64,000 nucleotides of DNA from Myotis daubentonii (Eukaryota; Chordata; Mammalia; Chiroptera; Vespertilionidae), in assembly GCF_963259705.1 (NCBI RefSeq), contig NC_081846.1, positions 87,060,641 to 87,124,640 of the forward strand, written 5' to 3'. A model generated the notes under the pieces. The model saw only the letters and a list, made by a program, of their open reading frames with translations, did no database searches and was not told the origin of the DNA. Positions 6,430-63,475 of this stretch are shown in pieces (within the stretch, counting starts at the first letter, position 1; every line of letters starts with the position of its first letter). The position numbers and the translations under genes were made by a program.

Positions 6430-7425
6430 TGGAGGGCTGCAGTTGGGGACAGAGGCAGGTGTCTGAGTCACACCTGGGATGGAAAGGACAGAGGCTGCAG
6501 GTGGGGACCGAGGCAGGTGTCTGAGACACACCTGGGATGGGAAGGACAGGGGCTGCAGGTGGGGACAGAGGCAGGTGTCTGAGTCACACCTGGGATGGGA
6601 AGGACAGGGGCTGCAGCTGGGGACAGAGGCAGGTGTCTGAGTCACACCTGGGATGGAAAGGACAGGGGCTGCAGGTGGGGACAGAGGCAGGTGTCTGAGT
6701 CACACCTGGGATGGGAAGGACAGGGGCTGCAGGTGGGGACAGAGGCAGGTGTCTGAGTCACACCTGGGATGGGAAGGACAGGGGCTGCAGCTGGGGACAG
6801 AGGCAGGTGTCTGAGTCACACCTGGGATGGAAAGGACAGGGGCTGCAGGTGGGGACAGAGGCAGGTGTCTGAGTCACACCTGGGATGGGAAGGACAGGGG
6901 CTGCAGGTGGGGACAGAGGCAGATGTCTGAGTCACACCTGGGATGGGAAGGACAGGGGCTGCAGGTGGGGACAGAGGCAGGTGTCTGAGTCACACCTGGG
7001 ATGGGAAGGACAGGGGCTGCAGCTGGGGACAGAGGCAGGTGTCTGAGTCACACCTGGGATGGAAAGGACAGGGGCTGCAAGTGGGGACAGAGGCAGGTGT
7101 CTGAGTCACACCTGGGATGGGAAGGACAGGGGCTGCAGGTGGGGACAGAGGCAGGTGTCTGAGTCACACCTGGGATGGGAAGGACAGGGGCTGCAGGTGG
7201 GGACAGAGGCAGGTGTCTGAGTCACACCTGGGATGGGAAGGACAGGGGCTGCAGGTGGGGACAGAGGCAGGTGTCTGAGTCACACCTGGGATGGGAAGGA
7301 CAGGGGCTGCAGGTGGGGACAGAGGCAGGTGTCTGAGTCACACCTGGGATGGGAAGGACAGGGGCTGCAGGTGGGGACAGAGGCAGGTGTCTGAGTCACA
7401 CCTGGGATGGGAAGGACAGGGGCTG
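6430..7425. repeat. 58-bp minisatellite, about 17 copies
   Basis: The tandem unit is 58 bp (for example GTGTCTGAGTCACACCTGGG starts at 6459 and again at 6517). It contains TGGGATGGGAAGGACAGGGG, then GCTGCAGGTGGGGACAGAGG. Copies are nearly identical. Two linked variants (CAGCTGG for CAGGTGG, and GGAAAGG for GGGAAGG in the next unit) recur at about 6613, 6787 and 7019, which are 3 and 4 units apart. That shows duplication of multi-unit blocks. Confidence 0.96.
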
Positions 7426-7969
7426 CTCCTGCGCAGCAGGGGGCTGGGGGGACAGCTGATGTGCTGAGCTTGGCCACGCTCAGGGCACTTGGGGACGAAG
7501 GCAGCTGTACGGAGTTCTCATAACTCCTGTCGGAGAGGGTCCGTGGGAGGGCAAAAAGACCTCACTCCGAGGAAGTGGGAGTCAGGGCTGGAGGCCCGGG
7601 TGTCGGCCCCCAGAAGGTCTTTTCTTCTCCAGACCCACCTGCCCCTTCCTCCCTCTGCCCTCCTCTCCTGGGCTCTGAGCACAGGAAGCCCACGGAGGAA
7701 GCACCCCGAAATGCTTTTGTATAGACACAGCCTCACAGCTGTGGGGTGTTTCCTGGGGGCGGGGGGGCAGGGAGAAGAGCTGGAGGAGCCACTGAAATCA
7801 TTAAGCGAGTGGCGAGGGAGTGGGGACACGCTGCTGCCACTTCCCATAGCTCCCGGCAGGACCTCCTAGGGACCCACGGAGTGCATCTCAAAAACCCACC
7901 GCGAGGTGGCAGGGCGGGACTAACAATCAGGCCGTCCGGCTGCCCCTGCGGCAGGCCTGGGACCCTGCA
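7426..7969. other. unique sequence between two minisatellites
   Basis: No repeat family or exon recognised. The two longest opposing open frames (126 and 109 codons) overlap each other, which argues against either being real. Confidence 0.35.
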
Positions 7970-14739: not shown

Positions 14740-16790
14740 ATTCTAGCATTTGCAGGCTCTATTCGAAGCATGCTGTACGAGTTAACTCGCTTCTTCTTCA
14801 CCACCTCTGAGGCAGGCGCTCACACACCTGCGTTAACTGATAGGGAAACTGAGGCTGCGAGGCCTGTCCGAGCCCACAGTCAGCCGCACACTGAACCACA
14901 CCCCCTCCAGGTGGGCATGCTCAGGCCTCATCTTGCACGCCACAGTCTAGGACAGCCCGGCCGGGACTCAGAAACAGGGGCCTCACGTTTTCCTGGCCGC
15001 TCTGACAAGCACCAAACCACCGGGGCTCTGCCAAGGGTCTCCCCACCCCAGCCCCTCCCTGTGCCCCCTGTCTACCTGCTGAGTGCCAGCCAGGCTACAG
15101 GACGGTGCGGGAGGGGCACAGTGGAATCAGAACTCAGGCTCCAGTGAGGGGACCAAGGACCCCAGAACTGCCTGCCGGTGACAAGGCCCCCGGGTCCTCC
15201 CAATGCTGAGGGCTTAGCGGCTCACCGCCAGGACCGTGAGCAGGGGTGGCCCCGCTAAGGGGGAGGCGAGCGACCTGGAGGACCCGCAGGAGTTCTGAGG
15301 TCCAGCCCTGGGAGCGGCATTGCCAAGCCTCTGGGAGCCAGAGGGGGACGACAGGCTTCAGTGAGACGGCCCCTTGCAGATGAGGGATCCTTGCGGCTCA
15401 GCCGCTCAGAGGGGCGCTTCCTCCTCTGTGTCATGGGCAGGTTGCCCTCCTGTGGGGCAGTTTTGAGGGTTAAAAGAGGTGACAGACAGGGGACCCACGC
15501 AGGCAGTTCGTGGTAGCAGATGGGCTTAGCAGCTGCCTGTGGGAACTTCAGCAGAGTGTACTGCAAAGCCCCTGCGTCCTTCCTGGCCTTGGGCAGGCAG
15601 CGCGGCAGGAGCGAGAGGAGTCGGTGGGAAGGGGCCCTGCTGCCTCAGGCTCGCCATCCTGCTCCCCGTCACCCCAGGCTGGTCTCCTCCCTTCTACAAA
15701 CAGCATGGAGGATGCGGTCGGTCGCGGGGCCCAGCATTGCGGGGAGGGCGTGGCTGGGCACAGGAGCTGGGCCTGGCTGTCACCCTTTCCTCAACACTTG
15801 CCCAGTTTCAAGGCCATTGTCATTCAGTCCCAGCCCCATGCCAGGAGCGAGGGAGGAATTCATATTATCCAGAGGAGTGGAAGCCCAGTTAGTCTGCTGC
15901 CCCAGGCTGACAGGCTCCTCCCTCTACCTCCGTCCTCACGGCTCAGTGCAGATGGAGGGATCCTTTAGTATCAACAGTCAAGCCTGGTCCCTACTCCGGC
16001 TTCTGTGAGAAACACGCTCACCTGTCCAAACTCAAATAAGGGACTCAGGGACACCAAGGACCGTGAAAGCAGCACTTTTCATGGCGTCTTGCAAGGTGGG
16101 GTGTCTGGTGAACAGGCGCACCCAGTGGTTACAACCAGCAATTGATCCCTAGTGCGCGAGTCCCTGCCCCGGTTCCGGTTCCTCATTGGCTGAGGACAAT
16201 GGGGTATATGCTCTCCCCTGCTGTCGCCTAAGTTTCCAATTGGGTTATTTAAAGAGTAGGCTGTGGGCTTTTTAGTTGTCTCCTCCTGCCTTTGTCTCTT
16301 TATGGTGGGAAGGTCTTCATGGGTCTTTCTACCCTCCCCCATAGCCTGCTTTCTTCAGGGACTTGGCAGTTGCATTAACTAGTTAAGCAAAGCGGCTCCT
16401 AGTATTTTTCCATTTAGAGCAAGATATGTTGAAAATGGACCACTGAGCCTCGTTCCTAATGCTTGAAGTCTCAGCTCTTCGGATGCATTTCAAAACCCCT
16501 GGGATCCAGCGCCTGCCTACCCTCGAGCCTCATCTCTGCTTCCTACCTTGGGCCCTTCCTAGGAGCTCCCCCTTCTTGTTGCCCACCCCCAACCTGTGTT
16601 TGTCTAATGACTCCAACATCCTAAGGCCTAGCACAGAGCCTGCCACAGGAAAGTGCTCAGTAATTACTTGATGAACGAATGGGGTGGTTATGAATGGGTA
16701 TGAGAAAGTGGGGAAATGAAGACTCCACCACAACTACTGTGGGCTGAAGCCATTATTACTACACCACCAGGAAACTCACCTGTCACCTCC
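14740..16790. other. unique sequence with MIR/L2 scraps
   Basis: A short MIR-like piece is seen at about 14,800-14,880 ('gatagggaaactgaggctgcgagg'). Another, 'cctagcacagagcctgccacaggaaagtgctcagtaa', is at about 16,625-16,665. The rest is unclassified. No exon is convincing. Confidence 0.4.
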
Positions 16791-17692
16791 CTGCACCACA
16801 GCTGGTTCCCACGTGTGTTCTCTCACTGCACATCCCTGCAGCACAGCTGGTTCCCACGCATGGTCTCTCACTGCACATCCCTGCACCACAGCTGGTTCCC
16901 ACGCATGGTCTCTCACTGCACATCCCTGCATCACAGCTGGTTCCCACGCATGGTCTCTCACTGCACATCCCTTCACTCACAGCTGGTTCCCACGCATGTT
17001 CTCTGTACTGCACATCCCTTCACCCACAGCTGGTTCCCACGCATGTTCTCTCACTGCACATCCCTTCACTCACAGCTGGTTCCCACGCATGGTCTCTCAC
17101 TGCACATCCCTTCACTCACAGCTGGTTCCCACGCATGGTCTCTCACTGCACATCCCTTCACCCACAGCTGGTTCCCACGCATGGTCTCTCACTGCACATC
17201 CCTTCACCCACAGCTGGTTCCCACGCATGGTCTCTCACTGCACATCCCTTCACCCACAGCTGGTTCCCACGCATGGTCTCTCACTGCACATCCCTTCACC
17301 CACAGCTGGTTCCCACGCATGGTCCCTCACTGCACATCCCTTCACCCACAGCTGGTTCCCACGCATGGTCTCTCACTGCACATCCCTTCACCCACAGCTG
17401 GTTCCCACGCATGGTCTCTCACTGCACATCCCTTCACTCACAGCTGGTTCCCACGCATGTTCTCTGTACTGCACATCCCTTCACCCACAGCTGGTTCCCA
17501 CGCATGTTCTCTGTACTGCACATCCCTTCACCCACAGCTGGTTCCCACGCATGTTCTCTCACTGCACATCCCTTCACTCACAGCTGATTCCCACCCATGT
17601 TCTCTCACTGTACGTCCCTTCACCCACTGCTGATTCCCATGCATGTTCTCTCACTGCACGTCCCTTCACCCATAGCCGATTCACTGGCATGT
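16790..17692. repeat. 46-bp minisatellite, about 19-20 copies
   Basis: The unit is CACAGCTGGTTCCCACGCAT then GGTCTCTCACTGCACATCCC then TTCACC, 46 bp (starts at 17,163 and 17,209, for example). First and last copies are more diverged, and central copies are nearly identical. Because 46 is not a multiple of 3 and the unit has no stop in any plus frame, 305- and 324-codon open frames cross it. They are artefacts. Confidence 0.96.
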
Positions 17693-18940
17693 TCTCTGTG
17701 CCAAAGCCACAGAAAAGTCAAAACAAAACCAAAAAGCACATCAAAACCCAGGAGGTCAATCAGCAAAACAAAGGGATTTTTCATTAAGTACTGAAGGTCT
17801 TGGGTTTCTGTTTAATCCCCATCACAGATGTGGCCCTGCCCCAAAGACATCTGGATTCTGGAAGGCTGAGGGCCGACTCCTGGGAGAGGGAGGGAGAAGC
17901 CCTGGGCAGCTCTGAAAACCTCTGTTCCTGGGAGACATGGCCCCCACATAGCTCCTGGAAAGAAAGTGCCAGGTTCAAGTCCACAGGCTTGAAGCAGTGG
18001 TGACAGTGGTTTCACAGAAGGTGGGACTGTAAACACGTATGTGGATTTTAAATTTAAAGTGTCATCTGGCCCAGCACCTACCTTCAGAGTTCAATCCTAA
18101 GCCCTTCTCCCACATCTGTGCAAAGATATGGCCCGGGGAACTCCCTCTGCACATTCTCTGTAATAAGAAAGTGGACACACCCAGGTGCCCATCCGCAGGG
18201 CAGACAGTTGATACCTCCTGTTCTAGTACATCCTCACCGTGGGCGATTAGGTCCCTCTCAGAACTGTAGCCAAGGAAAACGTTAAAGGGAAAAACTCGCT
18301 TTCAGAACAATATTTATAGTATTGTTCACTTTACGTCTATACATATGTTGAGAGGATGGGTACTTCTAGAAAGTGAAGGGAAGGTGATGGGAAGTGGGAG
18401 CATATTCCAGAGGCCACAGGGAGGGTGGAGAAGAGGGTGAGGAGCCGAGAGAATGGAGGTGTGAGGGCTCTGAGGTGGGAGCCCAGAGGAGGGAGGGTGG
18501 CAGGCGTGCTGGGCTCACCCGGGACCTGTGTGTCCTGGCAGCATGAGCAGGGCCTGGAAACATGTAAGTGGAGGGATGCCAGGGTAAGATGTGGAATTGC
18601 TAGTGTGTAGCTGAAAAAATAATTAAAATCATTTCTCTGTGTTGATAAGGAAAATTCATGGGTTCCTCTGTAGCCCAGGCAGAGCCCTTCCTCTGGTGGC
18701 CTGGGAAGGTGGGCAGGAGGGAGCGGCAGGAAGAGGGGCAGCGCCAGGCATAGTTCAGTCCGGCAAGGGGCACTCACTTCTGCTGTGGGTACATGTCTGC
18801 CACCCAGGGTCTGCGTTGCCTCATGGGGGCATCTGTGGGTGGACTTGGCAGGCTGGAGAAGAAAAGAGATGCAGGAATTGGGAAAGTAACTCAAAGGAAG
18901 AGGGATTTTGATACTAAAATGAAGTAAGTGGTTTTGAGTC
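17693..18940. other. unique sequence, no gene seen
   Basis: Mixed composition. A purine-rich stretch (GGGAGGGTGG and similar) lies at about 18,360-18,500. No transposon was recognised. Confidence 0.35.
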
Positions 18941-31798: not shown

Positions 31799-32283
31799 TC
31801 TATACTAATAAAAGGGTAATATGCTAATTAGACCAGACATCTTCTGGACGACCTTCTGGACATCCTTCCAGACAAAGCCATGGTGGCAGGGCCGAGGCAG
31901 AGGCAGTTAGGGGCGATCAGGCTGGCAGGGGAGAGCAGTCAGGGGTGATCAGGCTGGCAGGGGAGAGCAGTTAGGGGGAGCAGGCTGGCAGGGGAGAGCA
32001 GTTAGGGGGAGCAGGCTGGCAGGGGAGAGCAGTTAGGGGGATCAGGCTGGCAGGGGAGAGCAGTTAGGGGGATCAGGCAGGCAGGCAAAGGTGGTTAGGG
32101 GTGGTCAGGCAGGCAGACAGAGTGGTTAGGGGCGATCAAGCAGGCAGGCAGGTGAGCAGTTAGGAGCCAACAGTCCTGGATTGTGAGAGGACCCCCTAAT
32201 GGGGGTCCCAGATTGTAGAGGGTGCAGGCCAGGCTGAGGGACACCATCCCCCCATGCATGAATTTCATGCACCGGGCCTCTAG
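31799..32283 (+). mobile_element. non-autonomous Helitron (HeliBat type), copy 1 of a tandem pair
   Basis: The 5' end is TCTATACTAATAAAAGGGTA, preceded by A. The 3' end is CATGCATGAATTTCATGCAC then CGGGCCTCTAG, with a palindrome just before the terminal CTAG, the standard Helitron hairpin plus CTRR. It has no coding capacity. The interior carries a minisatellite (31,905-32,110). The next Helitron begins at the very next base. Confidence 0.95.
31905..32110. repeat. 31-bp minisatellite within the Helitron
   Basis: Six to seven copies of AGGCTGGCAGGGGAGAGCAG then TTAGGGGGA/TCAGGGGTGATC, with GGCTGG at 31,920, 31,952, 31,983, 32,014 and 32,045 (steps of 31-32 bp). Confidence 0.92.
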
Positions 32284-32471
32284 TCTATAATAATAAAAGT
32301 GTAATATGCTAATTAGACTAGCCGTCCTTCTGGACATCCTTCCAGACGACCTTCCAGACGAAGCCTGGGCTGTGAGGGAAGCCCAGATCCCAGGTGCCAG
32401 AGAGAACTGGTACCGGCAGCCGGGGGAAGGAAGGCCTATTCTCACATGAATTTCATGCATCGGGCCTCTAG
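32284..32471 (+). mobile_element. non-autonomous Helitron, copy 2 of the tandem pair
   Basis: It starts TCTATAATAATAAAAGTGTA immediately after the CTAG of copy 1. It ends CATGAATTTCATGCATCGGG then CCTCTAG, followed by T at 32,472. The 188-bp element shares the first about 60 bases and the last about 30 bases with copy 1 but lacks most of the interior. The pair occupies a single A/T target (A at 31,798, T at 32,472). Confidence 0.95.
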
Positions 32472-52789: not shown

Positions 52790-53700
52790 TTAAATGTAAA
52801 ATTTGGTGAGTTTTGGCTTATGTATGTAAACCATCTCCAGAACAAAATAGCGAACATCTCCATCATCCCCAGAAGTTCCTCCTTGGGAATCTGCCCCTCC
52901 CACCCCCTCACCTTCCCTAGGCAACCACTGACCTGCGTTCTCTCGCTGTAGATTAGCTTGTATTTTCTAAGTTAAAGGAACTGTACATCTTTTACTCAGC
53001 ACAACTATTCCGAGACTTATCCACATATCTATAGCCCGTTCCGTTTTTGTTGCTGAATAGTATTCCATCATATGGATAGAGCATAATTCGTTTATTCAGA
53101 TGCCCGTGGATGGATATTGGGGTTGTTGCCAGCTTGGGCTGTTACAGATAAGGCTGCTGTGAACATTTCTGTGCAAGTCGTTGGATGGGCACAGGTGTTC
53201 TTTTCTCTTGGGTAAACACTGAGGGGCGGGATGTCGGGCTCATTTGGTAGGTGTCTCTGGGTCCAGAGGGTGGTATGATTGACTTTTTAAGAAACTGCAA
53301 AATTGTTTACCAAAGAGGATTGTACCATTTTATATTCCCACTAGCAGTATATGAGTTCCAGTTCCACCACATCCTTGCCAATACGTGGAACGGTCAACTT
53401 TGAATTTTAGCTATTTTAATAAGCACCTAGTGGTGCTTCATTGTAGTTTTAATGTGCATTTTCCAGCGAGGGCTGTTCTTCTCTGGTATGCTCCATTGCC
53501 ATCGGCATATCGTCTTTGGTAAAGTGTCTGAACAACTTGTGCTTTTTTTTTTTTTCCAACCTTGGATTGATTGTTTTTTAAATTATTCAGTGTTGAAAAT
53601 TCTTGATATTTTCTGGATGCAAGTCCTTTATCAGGTATATGCTTTGCAAGTATTTTCTTCCAGTCTGTGGCTTATCTTTCCATTCACTTAACAGTATCTA

Positions 53701-53995
53701 TCTATATATGTAAAAGCCTAAGCAACTGTTATGACCAGGCGACCAGCCAACCAGCCGGTAGCCATGATGTGCACTGACCACCAGGGGGCAGACACTCAAC
53801 ACAGGAGCTGCCCTGATGGTTCGTGTGCTCCCACCGCCAACCTCCCGTGGTCCTTCCCCCCCCCACATCCCACCATACCCCCCACCCTGGCCAGCCAGCC
53901 CTGATCGCCCTGATCAGGACTGGGTGAGATGGCCCCAATCACTGGCCAGGTCAAGGGACCCCACCCGTGCACGAATTCATGCCCTGGGCCTCTAG
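53701..53995 (+). mobile_element. non-autonomous Helitron inside L1
   Basis: It starts TCTATATATGTAAAAGCCTA after A (53,700). It ends GTGCACGAATTCATGCCCTG then GGCCTCTAG, followed by T at 53,996. The palindrome GTGCACGAATTCATGCCC precedes the CTAG. The host L1 is continuous across the joint ('cttaacagtatct' then 'tgtagaataaaag'). It is 295 bp with no coding capacity. Confidence 0.95.
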
Positions 53996-54329: not shown

Positions 54330-56721
54330 CTAGTGGCCTGGTGCACGAAATTCATGCACATTGAAAGGGAAATAATTAAAGGAACGTAATTTGGACTCAC
54401 TATCTGATTTCAATAATATGTGAGCATGAGGCAGTCTGCGTTTCTGAAATTCAATGACATGAATTTTAGCTATTACTTTGCCAAATAAATGGAATTTTCA
54501 GATATCATTTAAAAGAGCATTCAGCTTAATATTAAAAATTCTGGCTACCAAGTCAGGTCTATTTTCACCTTTTTTGCCAGTGTTGTAAATTGTTTGCAAT
54601 ATCTGCCCATTTGAGGTTGCATGTCATGGTTATGAATAAATTGGGCTTGCCATACTTCGTTACAATTACCATAGCATCCTGATATCACTGCGGCATATTT
54701 CTGAGACTACCCTCAGGAGATGATGGAAGTATTATCATTTTACCAATTGTCACATTGTCATTTTCAGATCTAGATTTGAGATAATCCATCAAACCACTAT
54801 ATTTTTCAGCTCTCAACTTAGATTGGTTTGCTTTGATGAAATTTATCCAATTGGCCTTCATTTTTAAATATGAATCCACAATAAACTGTTGAGTTAATTT
54901 TCCTGCATTTAAAATAGGATTGAATGTGTCCCGCACAGAGAGATGAACTCCATAATACTGCATTTGTGTGACTCGTATCCTTACATTTTGTCTAGTATTA
55001 TTGTTGATTACACTGTTGTCTCTGAGTCTTAATGCAATATCTGTTCCCCAGCCTTTTTCACCATGTGGAAAAGAATAGGATATGTCATTGCATCTAATGT
55101 AGGAAACAGGATATTGATTTGTTTCATTTTAGTGGCATTTGGATTATTGGGCTCTGGTTTACAATGAATGAGCAAGACCCTTTCAAAAGAAGGTTCTCCA
55201 TCTTCGTTTCTGAATATGACAGCAACCTCAGTTACACGGGGAGAATTATATCTACCTGGGTCACTGTTACAATCGTATTTAATCGCCATTGTTACTTCTG
55301 TGGGAGCAATACCTTTCGCTGCTGCTTCAGATTGGGCTTCCTTTTCTACCTCATGTAGCATCTTGTACGATTTTGTTAATTCATTGATTTCATGCATGAG
55401 GTTGTTAATGTTGATCATGAGTCTTTCTGAGCAGCCCTGGTTTTCTGGAATTGCTAATCTTTTACTTGTAGCTTCAGCTGTATCCAAAATATAGAGTTGA
55501 GCAAACTTCCAAGAAACACCATCCGAAGGATGTGAAGTTCCAGTTTGGTGATAAACTTGTCTATGTATTCTAAAACAGTATGGCCCATATCCTGATGGCG
55601 ATGCAATATTTGCACCCATGGAAGCAAAAGCAAAGGAACTATTTATGGAAAGAATATTTTCCATGAAATTTTTACTGTCAGAATCTTCGTTTGTCATTAA
55701 TCTTTTTAAATATGCCGGGTAATCTGGAAAATGTATATCATTTGGACAGTCTTTCCCTTTGCTACAACATCAAGTAAATTTCCCATCGGATGGTTTTTCA
55801 TCAGAGAAATTTAGTGACAGGCAAAATTCACATCGAAAAGTCATTCCACCACAACTATGTTCGAGGATTGCATCCTCATGTACTCCATTTTCGCTGAGAA
55901 GGCAGTTCCTACCAGTATTGGTAGTACTTGTTGATGACTGTTCTCTAGACATATTCTTTCGTCGCCACCGCCTTCTTTCAACTTCAAAGGCACGTTGGTC
56001 TTTAGACATTTTCTGTTGATGATGCTGGTGTTTTTTGGCATCAGAGCAACGTTTTTCCAGTAGCTGGTGCTCAGATACATCCTGTCACAGGCGCTGCCTT
56101 CTTTCACGATCAGACGCACGCTGGTCTGCAGACATTTTCTGTCGATAACGCCGGCATCTTTCAGCTGCAGAGCTACGTTGTATCAATAGTTGTTCTTTAG
56201 ACAGAGTCCCACCTCTCTACTGTCACGATCTGAGATGCAGGTGAATAAGAGTCCTGGCTGTGAGGCCGCTGAGAGCTGTCTGACACAATGGCTGACTCTG
56301 TGGGGGTGGGACTTCCTCCTCCCTGCTGTCAGTTTCTACAGCTGTGATGAGGAAGCTGGGGTGATAGAGGGAGCCACGCCCTCCAAGCCGCCCTCTCTCT
56401 CACTCTGCTCTATGTCCCGAGGCCTCCTGCTCTATCAAGTCCTCCAAACCTCCCGCTCTCCGCCCGCTCTCCCGCTCTGCTCTCTGCCGGCGAAGTTCCT
56501 AGGAGCCCGCGGGCGTAGCTTGGCACAGCTGGCCTCACCTCCCGGGGCCGGCAATGGTCCTGGGAGCCAAGGGCCGCCGTTGCCTCCCAGGGCACTTGAC
56601 ACCTGCATATGCAAATTAACTGACCATCTTTGGCAGGTTGATTTGCATACTCACTCCTGATTGGCTGGTGAGTGTAGCGAAGGGATGGTCAATTTACATG
56701 TTTCTATTTTATTATGTAAGA
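54330..56721 (-). mobile_element. internally deleted Helitron (HeliBat type), 2,392 bp
   Basis: On the minus strand it starts TCTTACATAATAAAATAGAA at 56,721, preceded by A, and ends GTGCATGAATTTCGTGCACC then AGGCCACTAG at 54,330, with the terminal palindrome. The host L1 runs from 'gcttttacacctttataaaaaaat' at 54,329 to 'tctcttttccaaataaatgtggg' at 56,722, so both borders are confirmed. The base after CTAG on the minus strand is A rather than the usual T. It carries about 0.5 kb of leader, a damaged Rep reading frame and 89 bp of 3' tail. It lacks a helicase, so it cannot move by itself. Confidence 0.96.
54420..56204 (-). pseudogene. Helitron Rep-helicase, N-terminal part, broken and truncated
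   Basis: Helitron proteins join a Rep (HUH) nuclease to a SF1 helicase for rolling-circle transposition. Here the N-terminal part has an Arg-rich stretch of repeated units (R-R-x-R-x-K/N-M-S) at about 55,930-56,200, then a Cys-containing segment (GG-M-x-x-C-x-x-C, then CCSKGKDC) at about 55,745-55,860. Next comes a long open part with the Helitron-like N-terminal domain at 55,029-55,697, including SGYGPYCFRIHRQVYHQTG. The second open part is at 54,685-54,963 (LTQQFIVDSY...KYSGLMDYL...KMIILPSS). The last recognisable motif, LPHAH at 54,420-54,434, is the HUH histidine motif. Damage: TGA at 56,085-56,087, 55,770-55,772 and 54,685-54,687, a frameshift near 55,075, and more shifts below 54,620. 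The rest of Rep and the whole helicase are deleted. The start codon position seems to read CTG (56,204-56,202). Confidence 0.93.
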
Positions 56722-61440: not shown

Positions 61441-61854
61441 CGCTTGCTTCTCCCTTGCCCCTGGCCCCCTGTCTCCCCTGCTGCCTGTGCTCCTTTCCTC
61501 AACTCTCCGCAGCGACAGCACCACTGAGGGCCAGGTCCGCTGGTTTTCAGCCCCACATCTGCCTTCCCTGGGTCGTGTCCCCACCTTGCGGAGGGCTGTC
61601 TGCCCGGTGACCGGAGCCTGTGCAGCGGTCAGCCCCCCTTCTCACCAGCGATGTCTCTACGGAACCCGGGTGGCCTTTCGGGTGGGGCCACTGCCTGTGG
61701 GGCCTGGGGAGGGTTAAGGACAGTCTGTAATACAGTCAGCCCGACGCCTGCTCTGTGGGGTGTTCCTCCTCCTTCAGCCACATCAGAGGTGACATGTACA
61801 TGTTGGGCAGGGGGTGGAATGAGGGGAGCACCTGGCGCCTGCCCCTGCTGGGAG

Positions 61855-62180
61855 CCACCGTGGCCTGTCCCTGTCCCTGTGGCCTGTCCCTGTCCCTGTG
61901 GCCTGTCCCTGTCCCTGTCCCTGTTCAGAGCCACCGTGGCCTATCCCTGTCCCTGCTCAGAGCCACCGTGGCCTGTCCCTGTCCCTGCTCCTGCTCAGAG
62001 CCACTGTGGCCTGTCCCTGTGGCCTGTCCCTGTGGCCTGTCCCTGTCCCTGTCCCTGCTCAGAGCCACCATGGCCTGTCCCTGTCCCTGCTCAGAGCCAC
62101 CATGGCCTGTCCCTGTCCCTGTCCCTGCTCAGAGCCACCATGGCCTGTCCCTGTCCCTGTCCCTGCTCAGAGCCACCGTG

Positions 62181-62216
<36 letters not shown>

Positions 62217-62440
62217 TCAGAGCCACCGTGGCCTGTCCCTGTCCCTGTCCCTGTCCCTGCTCAGAGCCACCGTGGCCTGTCCCTGTCCCTGTCCCTGTCC
62301 CTGCTCAGAGCCACCGTGGCCTGTCCCTGTCCCTGTCCCTGTCCCTGCTCAGAGCCACCGTGGCCTGTCCCTGTCCCTGTCCCTGTCCCTGCTCAGAGCC
62401 ACCGTGGCCTGTTCCTGTCCCTGTCCCTGCTCGGAGCACA
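61855..62440. repeat. minisatellite with nested CCCTGT hexamers
   Basis: About 12 units each beginning CAGAGCCACCGTGGCCTGTC and followed by one to five CCCTGT hexamers, then CCCTGCT. Unit length varies from about 33 to 50 bp only through the number of hexamers. The 250-340-codon open frames (Pro-Val/Cys-Pro/Leu-Ser repeats) across it are artefacts. Confidence 0.95.
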
Positions 62441-63117
62441 GTGGAGAGGTCTGTGTGTTACCATGGCCTGCCCCTTCCCCCCCTCCCCCACCACTGGTAC
62501 CAGAAAGCTGTCACTTCAACCCAGGGTTCTTCCCTCCTTCCCTGGAGCCCTGGTTCCCTGTGCCCAGGTCTGGACTGTGGTCCCCATCATTGGCCAGGCC
62601 AGTGGTCCGTCTTGTGCTGGGACCCTGCTATTTATTCTAAAACTTGGGGCTTTTAGGTATCAACGTTCCTGCCTTTTTTGTCTTTGGAGTCCAGGTGGGG
62701 CCTTGGAGAAAGGCCATGGCTGGAGTCTTTGCTGTTTCCTCCGCGGTCGGCACCCGTCGCCCCTCTCTCTGGCCACCTGACCGGGCGCCGCTCTGCAGAA
62801 GGAGGCCCAGGAAGGCACCGGGGCAGGGCCAGGAGCAGCCCTCTGCCTCCCAGGGCCGCGGCCTTCCCTGGACGAGGCTCCGGGGGTCCCGCGCAGAGGA
62901 CTGCCTTCTTGGTGTGCGGCTTGGGCGGGAGCTGGGTGGGCGCTCAGTGGAAGGCGTGATTGCTGGGGTGCCCCTGCTGGGCCGGAGAGCCCCCCCTAGC
63001 CTGGCCGCATATCCTCACTCAGCCAGGGAGCGCGGCGGCTTCCGGAGGGGCAAACTAGAGATTTAGGCGAAGTCCGAGTAAGGCAGGCGCCGTGTCCTTT
63101 CCCACCAGCGCAGCTGC
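62441..63117. other. unique GC-rich sequence between minisatellites
   Basis: No repeat or exon recognised. CpG density rises at about 62,740-63,060. Confidence 0.35.
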
Positions 63118-63475
63118 TGCCGTGGCGCAGGGAGTCAGGTGGGCACGGGCCCCCACGCTGCTGGAGGCACAGGGAGTCAGGTGGGCACGGGCCCCCACGC
63201 TGCTGGAGGTGCAGGGAGTCAGGTGGGCACAGTGGCCCCCACGCTGCTGGAGGCGCAGGGAGTCAGGTGGGCACGGGCCCCCACGCTGCTGGAGGCGCAG
63301 GGAGTCAGGTGGGCACGGGCCCCATGCTGCTGGAGGTGCAGGGAGTCAGGTGGACACAGTGGCCCCCACGCTGCTGGAGGTGCAGGGAGTCAGGTGGGCA
63401 CGGGCCCCCACGCTGCTGGAGGCGCAGGGAGTCAGGTGGGCACAGTGGCCCCCACGCTGCTGGAGGCGCAGGAGC
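63118..63475. repeat. 41-45-bp minisatellite, 8 copies
   Basis: GGGAGTCAGGTGGGCACGGG, then CCCCCACGCTGCTGGAGGCGCA. Copies start at about 63,129, 63,172, 63,213, 63,257, 63,300, 63,340, 63,384 and 63,427. Two alternating variants (CACGGGCCCCC and CACAGTGGCCCCC) differ by 2 bp. Confidence 0.95.

What the first reader, a model, noticed from the sequence alone, without database searches (positions are those of the whole stretch)
54330..56721. Internally deleted Helitron keeps a lightly decayed Rep N-terminus that stops right after the nuclease histidine motif
Both ends and both L1 flanks are exact, so this is a single, complete insertion. The coding part runs from an Arg-rich N-terminus through the Helitron-like N domain to LPHAH at 54,420, and then jumps straight into the 3' tail. 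The break right after the HUH motif suggests one internal deletion, either before insertion (a mobile truncated family) or after it. Nonsense codons are few (three TGA), and I infer that all three could be CGA to TGA decay.
Basis: partly seen in the sequence, partly recalled or inferred. Interest (0 to 1): 0.8.

Follow-up and report, generated by a model that had tools for sequence, protein, structure and literature searches.

The report
Mobile, half-deleted bat Helitron family
This is one old, broken copy of a shortened bat jumping gene that lost the back half of its enzyme in a single deletion and still spread to many places, presumably using the enzyme of its intact relatives.

Summary
The element is real and complete: minus strand, 56,721 to 54,330, 5'-TC to CTAG-3', hairpin 11 nt from the end. 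Its coding part matches Helraiser (7lcc_A) residues 1-608; H593/H595 are kept, Y727/Y731 and helicase gone. The joint is at 54,382-54,384, 13 codons after H595. This copy has four in-frame TGA, two frameshifts and no start codon.

The decisive test was run in the window's own genome: 40 of 40 scored matches, of 551 candidates, cross the joint. A 25-nt joint pattern has 148 places, its reversed control 0; the intact left break has 51. Intact copies carry TTC at both break points, so one deletion of about 2.85 kb with 3-bp microhomology made the joint. One star-like clade fits the copies. The family consensus keeps an open 610-aa frame, but a nonsense allele is in 16 of 39 copies.

So this is a non-autonomous deletion derivative of HeliBat1, presumably moved in trans, inserted here about 9 My ago. 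It is ordinary in kind. The scrambling of shared variants among copies is less ordinary and unresolved.

The parts
54330..56721 (-). Whole element, a truncated HeliBat1 (Helitron) copy of 2,392 bp, 5'-TC to CTAG-3'
   Evidence: family consensus length 2,394
56572..56721 (-). Left terminal sequence, begins TC after a flanking A; the 150-bp extent is taken from the Helraiser description (PMC5876387 passage)
   Evidence: 23 of the 30 copies with a located start (of 39 examined) begin TC
56202..56204 (-). Former start codon M1, reads CTG here; ATG in the family consensus
54382..56204 (-). Decayed Rep N-terminal coding region, Helraiser residues 1-608 (DNA-binding N domain and start of the HUH nuclease)
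56085..56087 (-). In-frame TGA, codon 40 (CGA in consensus, Gln in Helraiser)
55770..55772 (-). In-frame TGA, codon 145 (Arg CGA in consensus)
55068..55078 (-). Frameshift: one T lost in a T run near codon 378
54685..54687 (-). In-frame TGA, codon 507 (Arg CGA in consensus)
54570..54582 (-). Frameshift: one extra A in an A run
54498..54500 (-). In-frame TGA, codon 569 (Cys TGT in consensus)
54420..54434 (-). LPHAH, HUH motif, His 593 and His 595 of Helraiser
   Evidence: numbering from PMC4778049
54382..54384 (-). Deletion joint: TTC microhomology shared by both break points of intact copies
54372..54374 (-). Position of the family's stop codon (TAA in consensus, third codon after S608), TAT in this copy
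54330..54381 (-). Retained right terminal sequence
54341..54359 (-). 19-bp palindrome, hairpin 11 nt from the 3' end
   Evidence: same spacing as in Helraiser

Best explanation
The window holds one copy of a non-autonomous Helitron family made by a single internal deletion in an autonomous HeliBat1 element. The deletion ran from codon 608 of the RepHel gene to 52 bp before the 3' end (about 2.85 kb) and sealed at a 3-bp TTC microhomology. It kept both terminal sequences, so RepHel made by intact copies could nick, roll out and reinsert the shortened element in trans (inferred from the kept ends and from published cross-mobilisation of HelibatN1 and N3 ends by Helraiser). The family outnumbers intact left breaks in pattern counts (148 against 51). 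This copy entered an A/T-rich site on the order of 9 million years ago and then decayed.
For: Shared joint: 40 of 40 scored of 551 candidates; 148 pattern places within 2 mismatches, 46 of them exact, 0 for the reversed control; different flanks. Parent: 150 PIF1-helicase matches scored of 864 candidates in this genome. Of 20 such loci held, 10 gave a left-break context, of which 8 end in TTC, and 18 gave a right-break context, of which 12 begin with TTC where placed. Of the 20, 15 match this copy's last 30 bp at 80% or more. Clade: truncated rows need 2 changes of label on the tree (shuffled mean 17.0, 0 of 500 shuffles as low); the tree holding them together has the higher likelihood, p-AU 0.77. 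Age: non-CpG K2P 0.0213 for this copy, mean 0.0285 for 40, at 2.366e-9 (PMC4436864, passage). Cross-mobilisation in print (PMC4778049).
Against: Trans-mobilisation itself was not tested; in print the ends of HelibatN2 were not moved by Helraiser. One copy with an intact left break (L081) falls inside the truncated clade in the free tree, so a second origin or exchange is not excluded. This copy's 3' flank base is A, not T. The pattern counts are for short patterns with up to 2 mismatches; 11 of the 51 intact hits lie in one chromosomal cluster, and the intact right-break count did not complete.
Confidence: 0.94

Rival explanations
1. Local damage: the deletion happened in this copy only, after insertion.
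For: None found.
Against: The same joint is at many other places in different flanks.
Confidence: 0.005
2. The truncated family was selected to keep a 610-aa Rep fragment, which bound the ends and repressed or helped transposition (like the KP repressor of the P element, a comparison made from recall).
For: The consensus frame is fully open from M1 to S608, then Ser-Asn and TAA. Without its N-terminal 489 residues Helraiser does not bind ssDNA (PMC4778049). Non-CpG variants in 3 or more copies are less often nonsynonymous than singletons (55N/29S against 654N/180S, p 0.009).
Against: At 5 or more copies the contrast is not significant (16N/8S, p 0.21), while the same cut shows clear constraint in the 20 full-length copies (11N/19S against 281N/88S, p 1.3e-5); truncated against full-length at that cut gives p 0.054. 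Nonsense S447* (TCA to TAA) is in 16 of 39 truncated copies. Each of the 40 copies has at least one in-frame stop (four rows there include misaligned 5' flank). Part of the shared variation may predate the deletion.
Confidence: 0.05
3. The joint arose more than once by recurrent deletion at the TTC microhomology.
For: L081 lies inside the truncated clade in the free tree; some variants (339T, 819C, 1340A) occur in both truncated and full-length copies.
Against: A 3-bp microhomology is weak. Near the joint, the alleles at positions 1686, 1740 and 1805 are fixed in 40 of 40 truncated copies but found in 4, 3 and 4 of 20 full-length ones. One clade is not rejected and has the higher likelihood.
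Confidence: 0.06
4. Dispersed copies exchanged sequence (gene conversion, or template switching during rolling-circle replication) while spreading.
For: Shared non-CpG variants are close to linkage equilibrium. For 23 of them in the masked alignment of 40 copies the minor-gamete sum is 0.83 of the value for free mixing; 0 of 100 simulations without exchange reach it (mean 0.42, max 0.82). In a stricter subset (33 of 40 copies, beyond nt 190) 3 of 200 reach it. At 13 of 21 sites with the same major base the variant is absent from full-length copies (pooled 171 of 785 reads against 34 of 380, L081 left out), which speaks against mutation hot spots.
Against: No decay with distance, even under 30 bp, which simple exchange tracts should give. 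The plain share of pairs with all four gametes (0.77) lies within the simulated range (max 0.79), and 13 of 200 stricter simulations have as many shared transversions. Recombination between alleles at a few source loci in the host population could also mix variants.
Confidence: 0.3

Closest known systems
HeliBat1 / Helraiser (autonomous Helitron of vesper bats; PDB 7lcc)
   Same: Ends TC/CTAG, 19-bp palindrome 11 nt from the end, Rep residues 1-608, A/T-rich target.
   Different: About 2.85 kb is missing: the Tyr motif of the nuclease, the whole helicase and most of the 3' untranslated part.
HelibatN1, N2, N3 and N541/N542/N580 (non-autonomous bat Helitrons)
   Same: Non-autonomous members of the same system; N1 and N3 ends are usable by Helraiser.
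   Different: In the passages read, N3 came from a gene capture (NUBPL). Ours is a plain deletion derivative with 1.8 kb of Rep. Whether any named N family equals ours could not be checked; no Repbase or Dfam library was on hand.
Deletion derivative of the Mothra mother element (rice Helitron; PMC4683698, passages read)
   Same: A shortened Helitron matching almost all of its mother element apart from a lost coding part.
   Different: Plant family; that derivative lost the RPA domain, not the back of RepHel.
Ds-del elements of Ac (PMC3260210, start of the abstract in a listing only)
   Same: Internal deletion of an autonomous element, moved in trans.
   Different: Not a rolling-circle element (cut-and-paste hAT family, recalled).

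Membership tests
Helitron, HeliBat1 family | 5'-TC and CTAG-3' ends | tested here: met
Helitron, HeliBat1 family | 19-bp palindrome 11 nt before the 3' end | tested here: met
   against PMC4778049
Helitron, HeliBat1 family | Last 30 bp at least 80% identical to intact family members | tested here: met
   15 of 20 helicase loci held; the other 5 stay below 80% in an ungapped comparison. The threshold follows the 20% divergence cut used in PMC4778049
Helitron, HeliBat1 family | Insertion between A and T | tested here: not met
   this copy has A and A; 38 of 39 other copies have T after the 3' end. Published targeting is not absolute, so this does not speak against family identity
Helitron, HeliBat1 family | No target duplication, contiguous empty site | tested here: met
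   6 of 10 other places matching the joined flanks run across the junction, best 81%; one was aligned base by base
Autonomous Helitron | Complete RepHel with HUH, two Tyr and SF1 helicase | tested here: not met
   alignment ends at residue 608 of 1,496
Non-autonomous deletion-derivative family | Many copies with one joint in different flanks | tested here: met
Non-autonomous deletion-derivative family | Both break points found intact in autonomous relatives | tested here: met
   whether any of those relatives is still autonomous was not tested
Non-autonomous deletion-derivative family | Moves when RepHel is supplied in trans | not testable with these tools
   needs a cell assay

The most novel reading that the evidence does not exclude
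Dispersed copies of this Helitron traded short stretches with each other, and perhaps with full-length elements, while they spread, so that the family behaved like a recombining population rather than a tree of copies. Rolling-circle replication with template switching between copies would be one way.
Probability: 0.28. Interest if true: 0.55.

Novelty: new member of a known kind. Interest (0 to 1): 0.32.

Why it matters
It gives a dated mammalian case of how an autonomous Helitron yields a parasite of itself by one microhomology-sealed deletion, with parent, joint and offspring all in one genome. Because the offspring keep 1.8 kb of former coding sequence, they allow a direct comparison of constraint before and after loss of autonomy, and a test of whether Helitron copies exchange sequence.

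Tried and rejected
Led nowhere: viral contigs with the joint pattern and the tail pattern (0 matches) and with a Rep piece (2 stretches matched a pattern, none confirmed); prokaryote genome contigs with the tail pattern (0). The 55-aa joint peptide found no protein. A Rep piece found 19 proteins, 6 of them named Cnephaeus nilssonii, which fits a vesper bat but does not name the species. Local damage was rejected. An idea that an extra A was inserted after CTAG was dropped because the place fetched across the junction carries that base. Distance-based linkage tests gave no decay. A first mean divergence (0.0548) was dropped because four rows (L010, L016, L029, L033) took in misaligned 5' flank; one search keeps only stretches aligned at 85% or more. 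Literature: of 6 papers holding the term Helibat, PMC4778049 has 31 occurrences and the others 1 to 4 (listing; PMC5876387 also seen as passages). Searches listed no title or abstract start that describes this truncated family; that is no proof that none exists, and most subscription papers are not held. Of PMC4778049 I saw the abstract, two of three parts of the Results, section 12 and passages.

Full report
What is there. On the minus strand from 56,721 to 54,330 lies a 2,392-bp element that begins TC and ends CTAG, with a 19-bp palindrome 11 nt before the end. The Helraiser paper gives the same ends and hairpin spacing (PMC4778049, Results part 1). Pieces between stops match Helraiser, PDB 7lcc_A, and a read-through with X at the breaks aligns to residues 1-608 without a gap. 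H593 and H595 are kept; the catalytic Y727 and Y731 and the helicase lie beyond the joint.

The joint is not at LPHAH but 13 codons later, at 54,382-54,384. In this copy the frame has four TGA (codons 40, 145, 507, 569), two one-base frameshifts in homopolymer runs and CTG for the start codon. Codons 40, 145 and 507 are CGA in the family consensus; codon 40 has G in the middle in 27 of 36 copies read and is Gln in Helraiser. Codon 569 is TGT, so its stop is a different change. The flanking base at the 3' end is A. With the flanks joined, 12 places match in the genome, 2 of them the window's own flanks; 6 of the other 10 run across the junction, the best at 81%. That one was fetched and carries the A/T base in question, so the target was probably AA. 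Helraiser used non-AT sites in 46 of 1,751 insertions, AA among the commoner ones.

The decisive test. The genome that holds the window (2.13 Gb, 121 contigs) was searched with the last 141 nt of the element. The tool scored 40 of 551 candidates, and all 40 match across the joint: this copy and 39 others at 91-94%. I fetched those 39. Aligned, they share the joint and differ in what follows CTAG. Against a 20-nt joint consensus, 23 of 40 have no mismatch, 13 one and 4 two. Since the copies were found with a joint query, their sharing it is expected; the independent measure is the pattern count: 148 places within 2 mismatches, 46 exact, and 0 for the pattern read backwards. The intact left break has 51 places, 13 exact, 0 for its control; 11 of these 51 lie in one cluster on contig C3.

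The parent. Pfam PIF1 found 864 candidates in this genome, of which 150 were scored. Twenty of these loci are held. Ten gave a left-break context: 8 of 10 end in TTC, followed by AGAAGATGACATTG or a near match; one was cut off by the locus end (L053) and one differs (L060). Eighteen gave a right-break context: 12 of 18 begin TTC where placed, after AATATTAAAATAT or a near match; in the rest the base differs or the placement slips. TTC occurs at both, so the deletion sealed at 3 bp of microhomology. In 9 loci where both ends were placed, the span between them is 2,629-3,080 bp, 6 of 9 between 2,828 and 2,855. Twenty 5' Rep stretches with an intact left break were fetched. On a quick tree without CpG-type columns, the truncated rows need 2 changes of label because one full-length copy, L081, falls among them. 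Held together, the 40 have a higher likelihood than the free tree, p-AU 0.77. At positions 1686, 1740 and 1805, near the joint, the truncated allele is in 40 of 40 truncated copies and in 4, 3 and 4 of 20 full-length ones.

Age. Non-CpG K2P to the family consensus over the coding part is 0.0213 here, mean 0.0285 for 40 copies and 0.0271 for 20 full-length copies to their own consensus (only stretches aligned at 85% or more are counted). With 2.366e-9, cited for bats in PMC4436864 (passage; printed there per million years, read by me as per year), that is about 9 and 12 million years. PMC4778049 places HeliBat activity between 30-36 and 1.8-6 million years ago (passage). If copies exchanged sequence, these ages are too young.

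Did the fragment matter? The consensus of 40 copies has an open frame of 610 codons, M1 to S608 plus two codons, so the deletion hit a working or recently working gene. Without CpG-type changes, those found in one copy only are 654 nonsynonymous to 180 synonymous. Those in 5 or more copies are 16 to 8 (p 0.21) and those in 3 or more are 55 to 29 (p 0.009). In full-length copies the 5-or-more class is 11 to 19 against 281 to 88 (p 1.3e-5); truncated against full-length in that class gives p 0.054. With CpG-type changes the truncated 5-or-more class is 84 to 33, plus 10 nonsense. Constraint is plain in full-length lineages and weak or absent in the truncated one. The weak signal may be variation inherited from before the deletion, or chance recurrence at count 3-4. 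Nonsense S447* is in 16 of 39 truncated copies and 7 of 19 full-length ones. I therefore read the fragment as a passenger.

A loose end. Well-shared non-CpG variants (26) are scrambled among copies. For the 23 left in the masked alignment a linkage measure stands at 0.83 of free mixing. Of 100 simulations on the best tree without exchange, none reaches it (mean 0.42, max 0.82), although the plain share of four-gamete pairs, 0.77, is within the simulated range (max 0.79). In a stricter subset (33 of 40 copies, beyond nt 190) 3 of 200 reach the linkage measure. Hot spots are unlikely because at 13 of 21 sites with the same major base the variant is absent from full-length copies; at others, such as 339 and 1340, it is as common there. 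Yet there is no decay with distance. Exchange between copies is suggested, not shown.

How it works (inferred). Helraiser's cleavage signals lie within 40 bp of each end, and Helraiser mobilised the ends of HelibatN1 (about 28% of its own activity) and N3 (about 2%), though not N2. The truncated element keeps both ends and would have been replicated and inserted by RepHel from intact copies. No step of this was tested here.

Placement. It is a non-autonomous deletion derivative of HeliBat1: a known kind, possibly a known family under a name that I could not look up.

Noticed in passing
window about 31,799-32,283 and 32,284-32,471 (+): Two other short Helitron-like elements abut head to tail: the first ends CTAG and the next begins at once, with a 31-bp tandem repeat inside the first.
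   Followed up: partly
window about 53,700-53,995 (+): Another short Helitron-like element ending CTAG lies about 330 bp beside this one, with a variant hairpin. Its start was not determined.
   Followed up: no
L009-L047, 5' flanks: Of 39 copies, 30 have a located start; 18 follow A, 10 follow G and 2 follow T. Of the 10 with G, 7 read CTAG: they sit directly behind what looks like another Helitron's 3' end. PMC4778049 reports such abutting insertions.
   Followed up: partly
L009-L047, 3' flanks: Beyond T at +1 (38 of 39), A at +10 is found in 33 of 39 and ATAA starts at +8 in 12 of 39: a fixed spacing that was not tested against a background.
   Followed up: partly
own genome, contig C3, 94.76-96.58 Mb: Eleven like-oriented HeliBat1 left-break hits with the same one-base change, about 0.08-0.26 Mb apart: probably an amplified chromosomal block carrying the element.
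   Followed up: no
L081: A copy with an intact left break that carries several alleles otherwise special to the truncated family: nearest parent lineage or a recombinant.
   Followed up: partly
window 6,434-7,426; 16,775-17,697; 61,838-62,444; 63,124-63,472: Long tandem arrays with units of 58, 46, about 38-44 and 42 bp.
   Followed up: no
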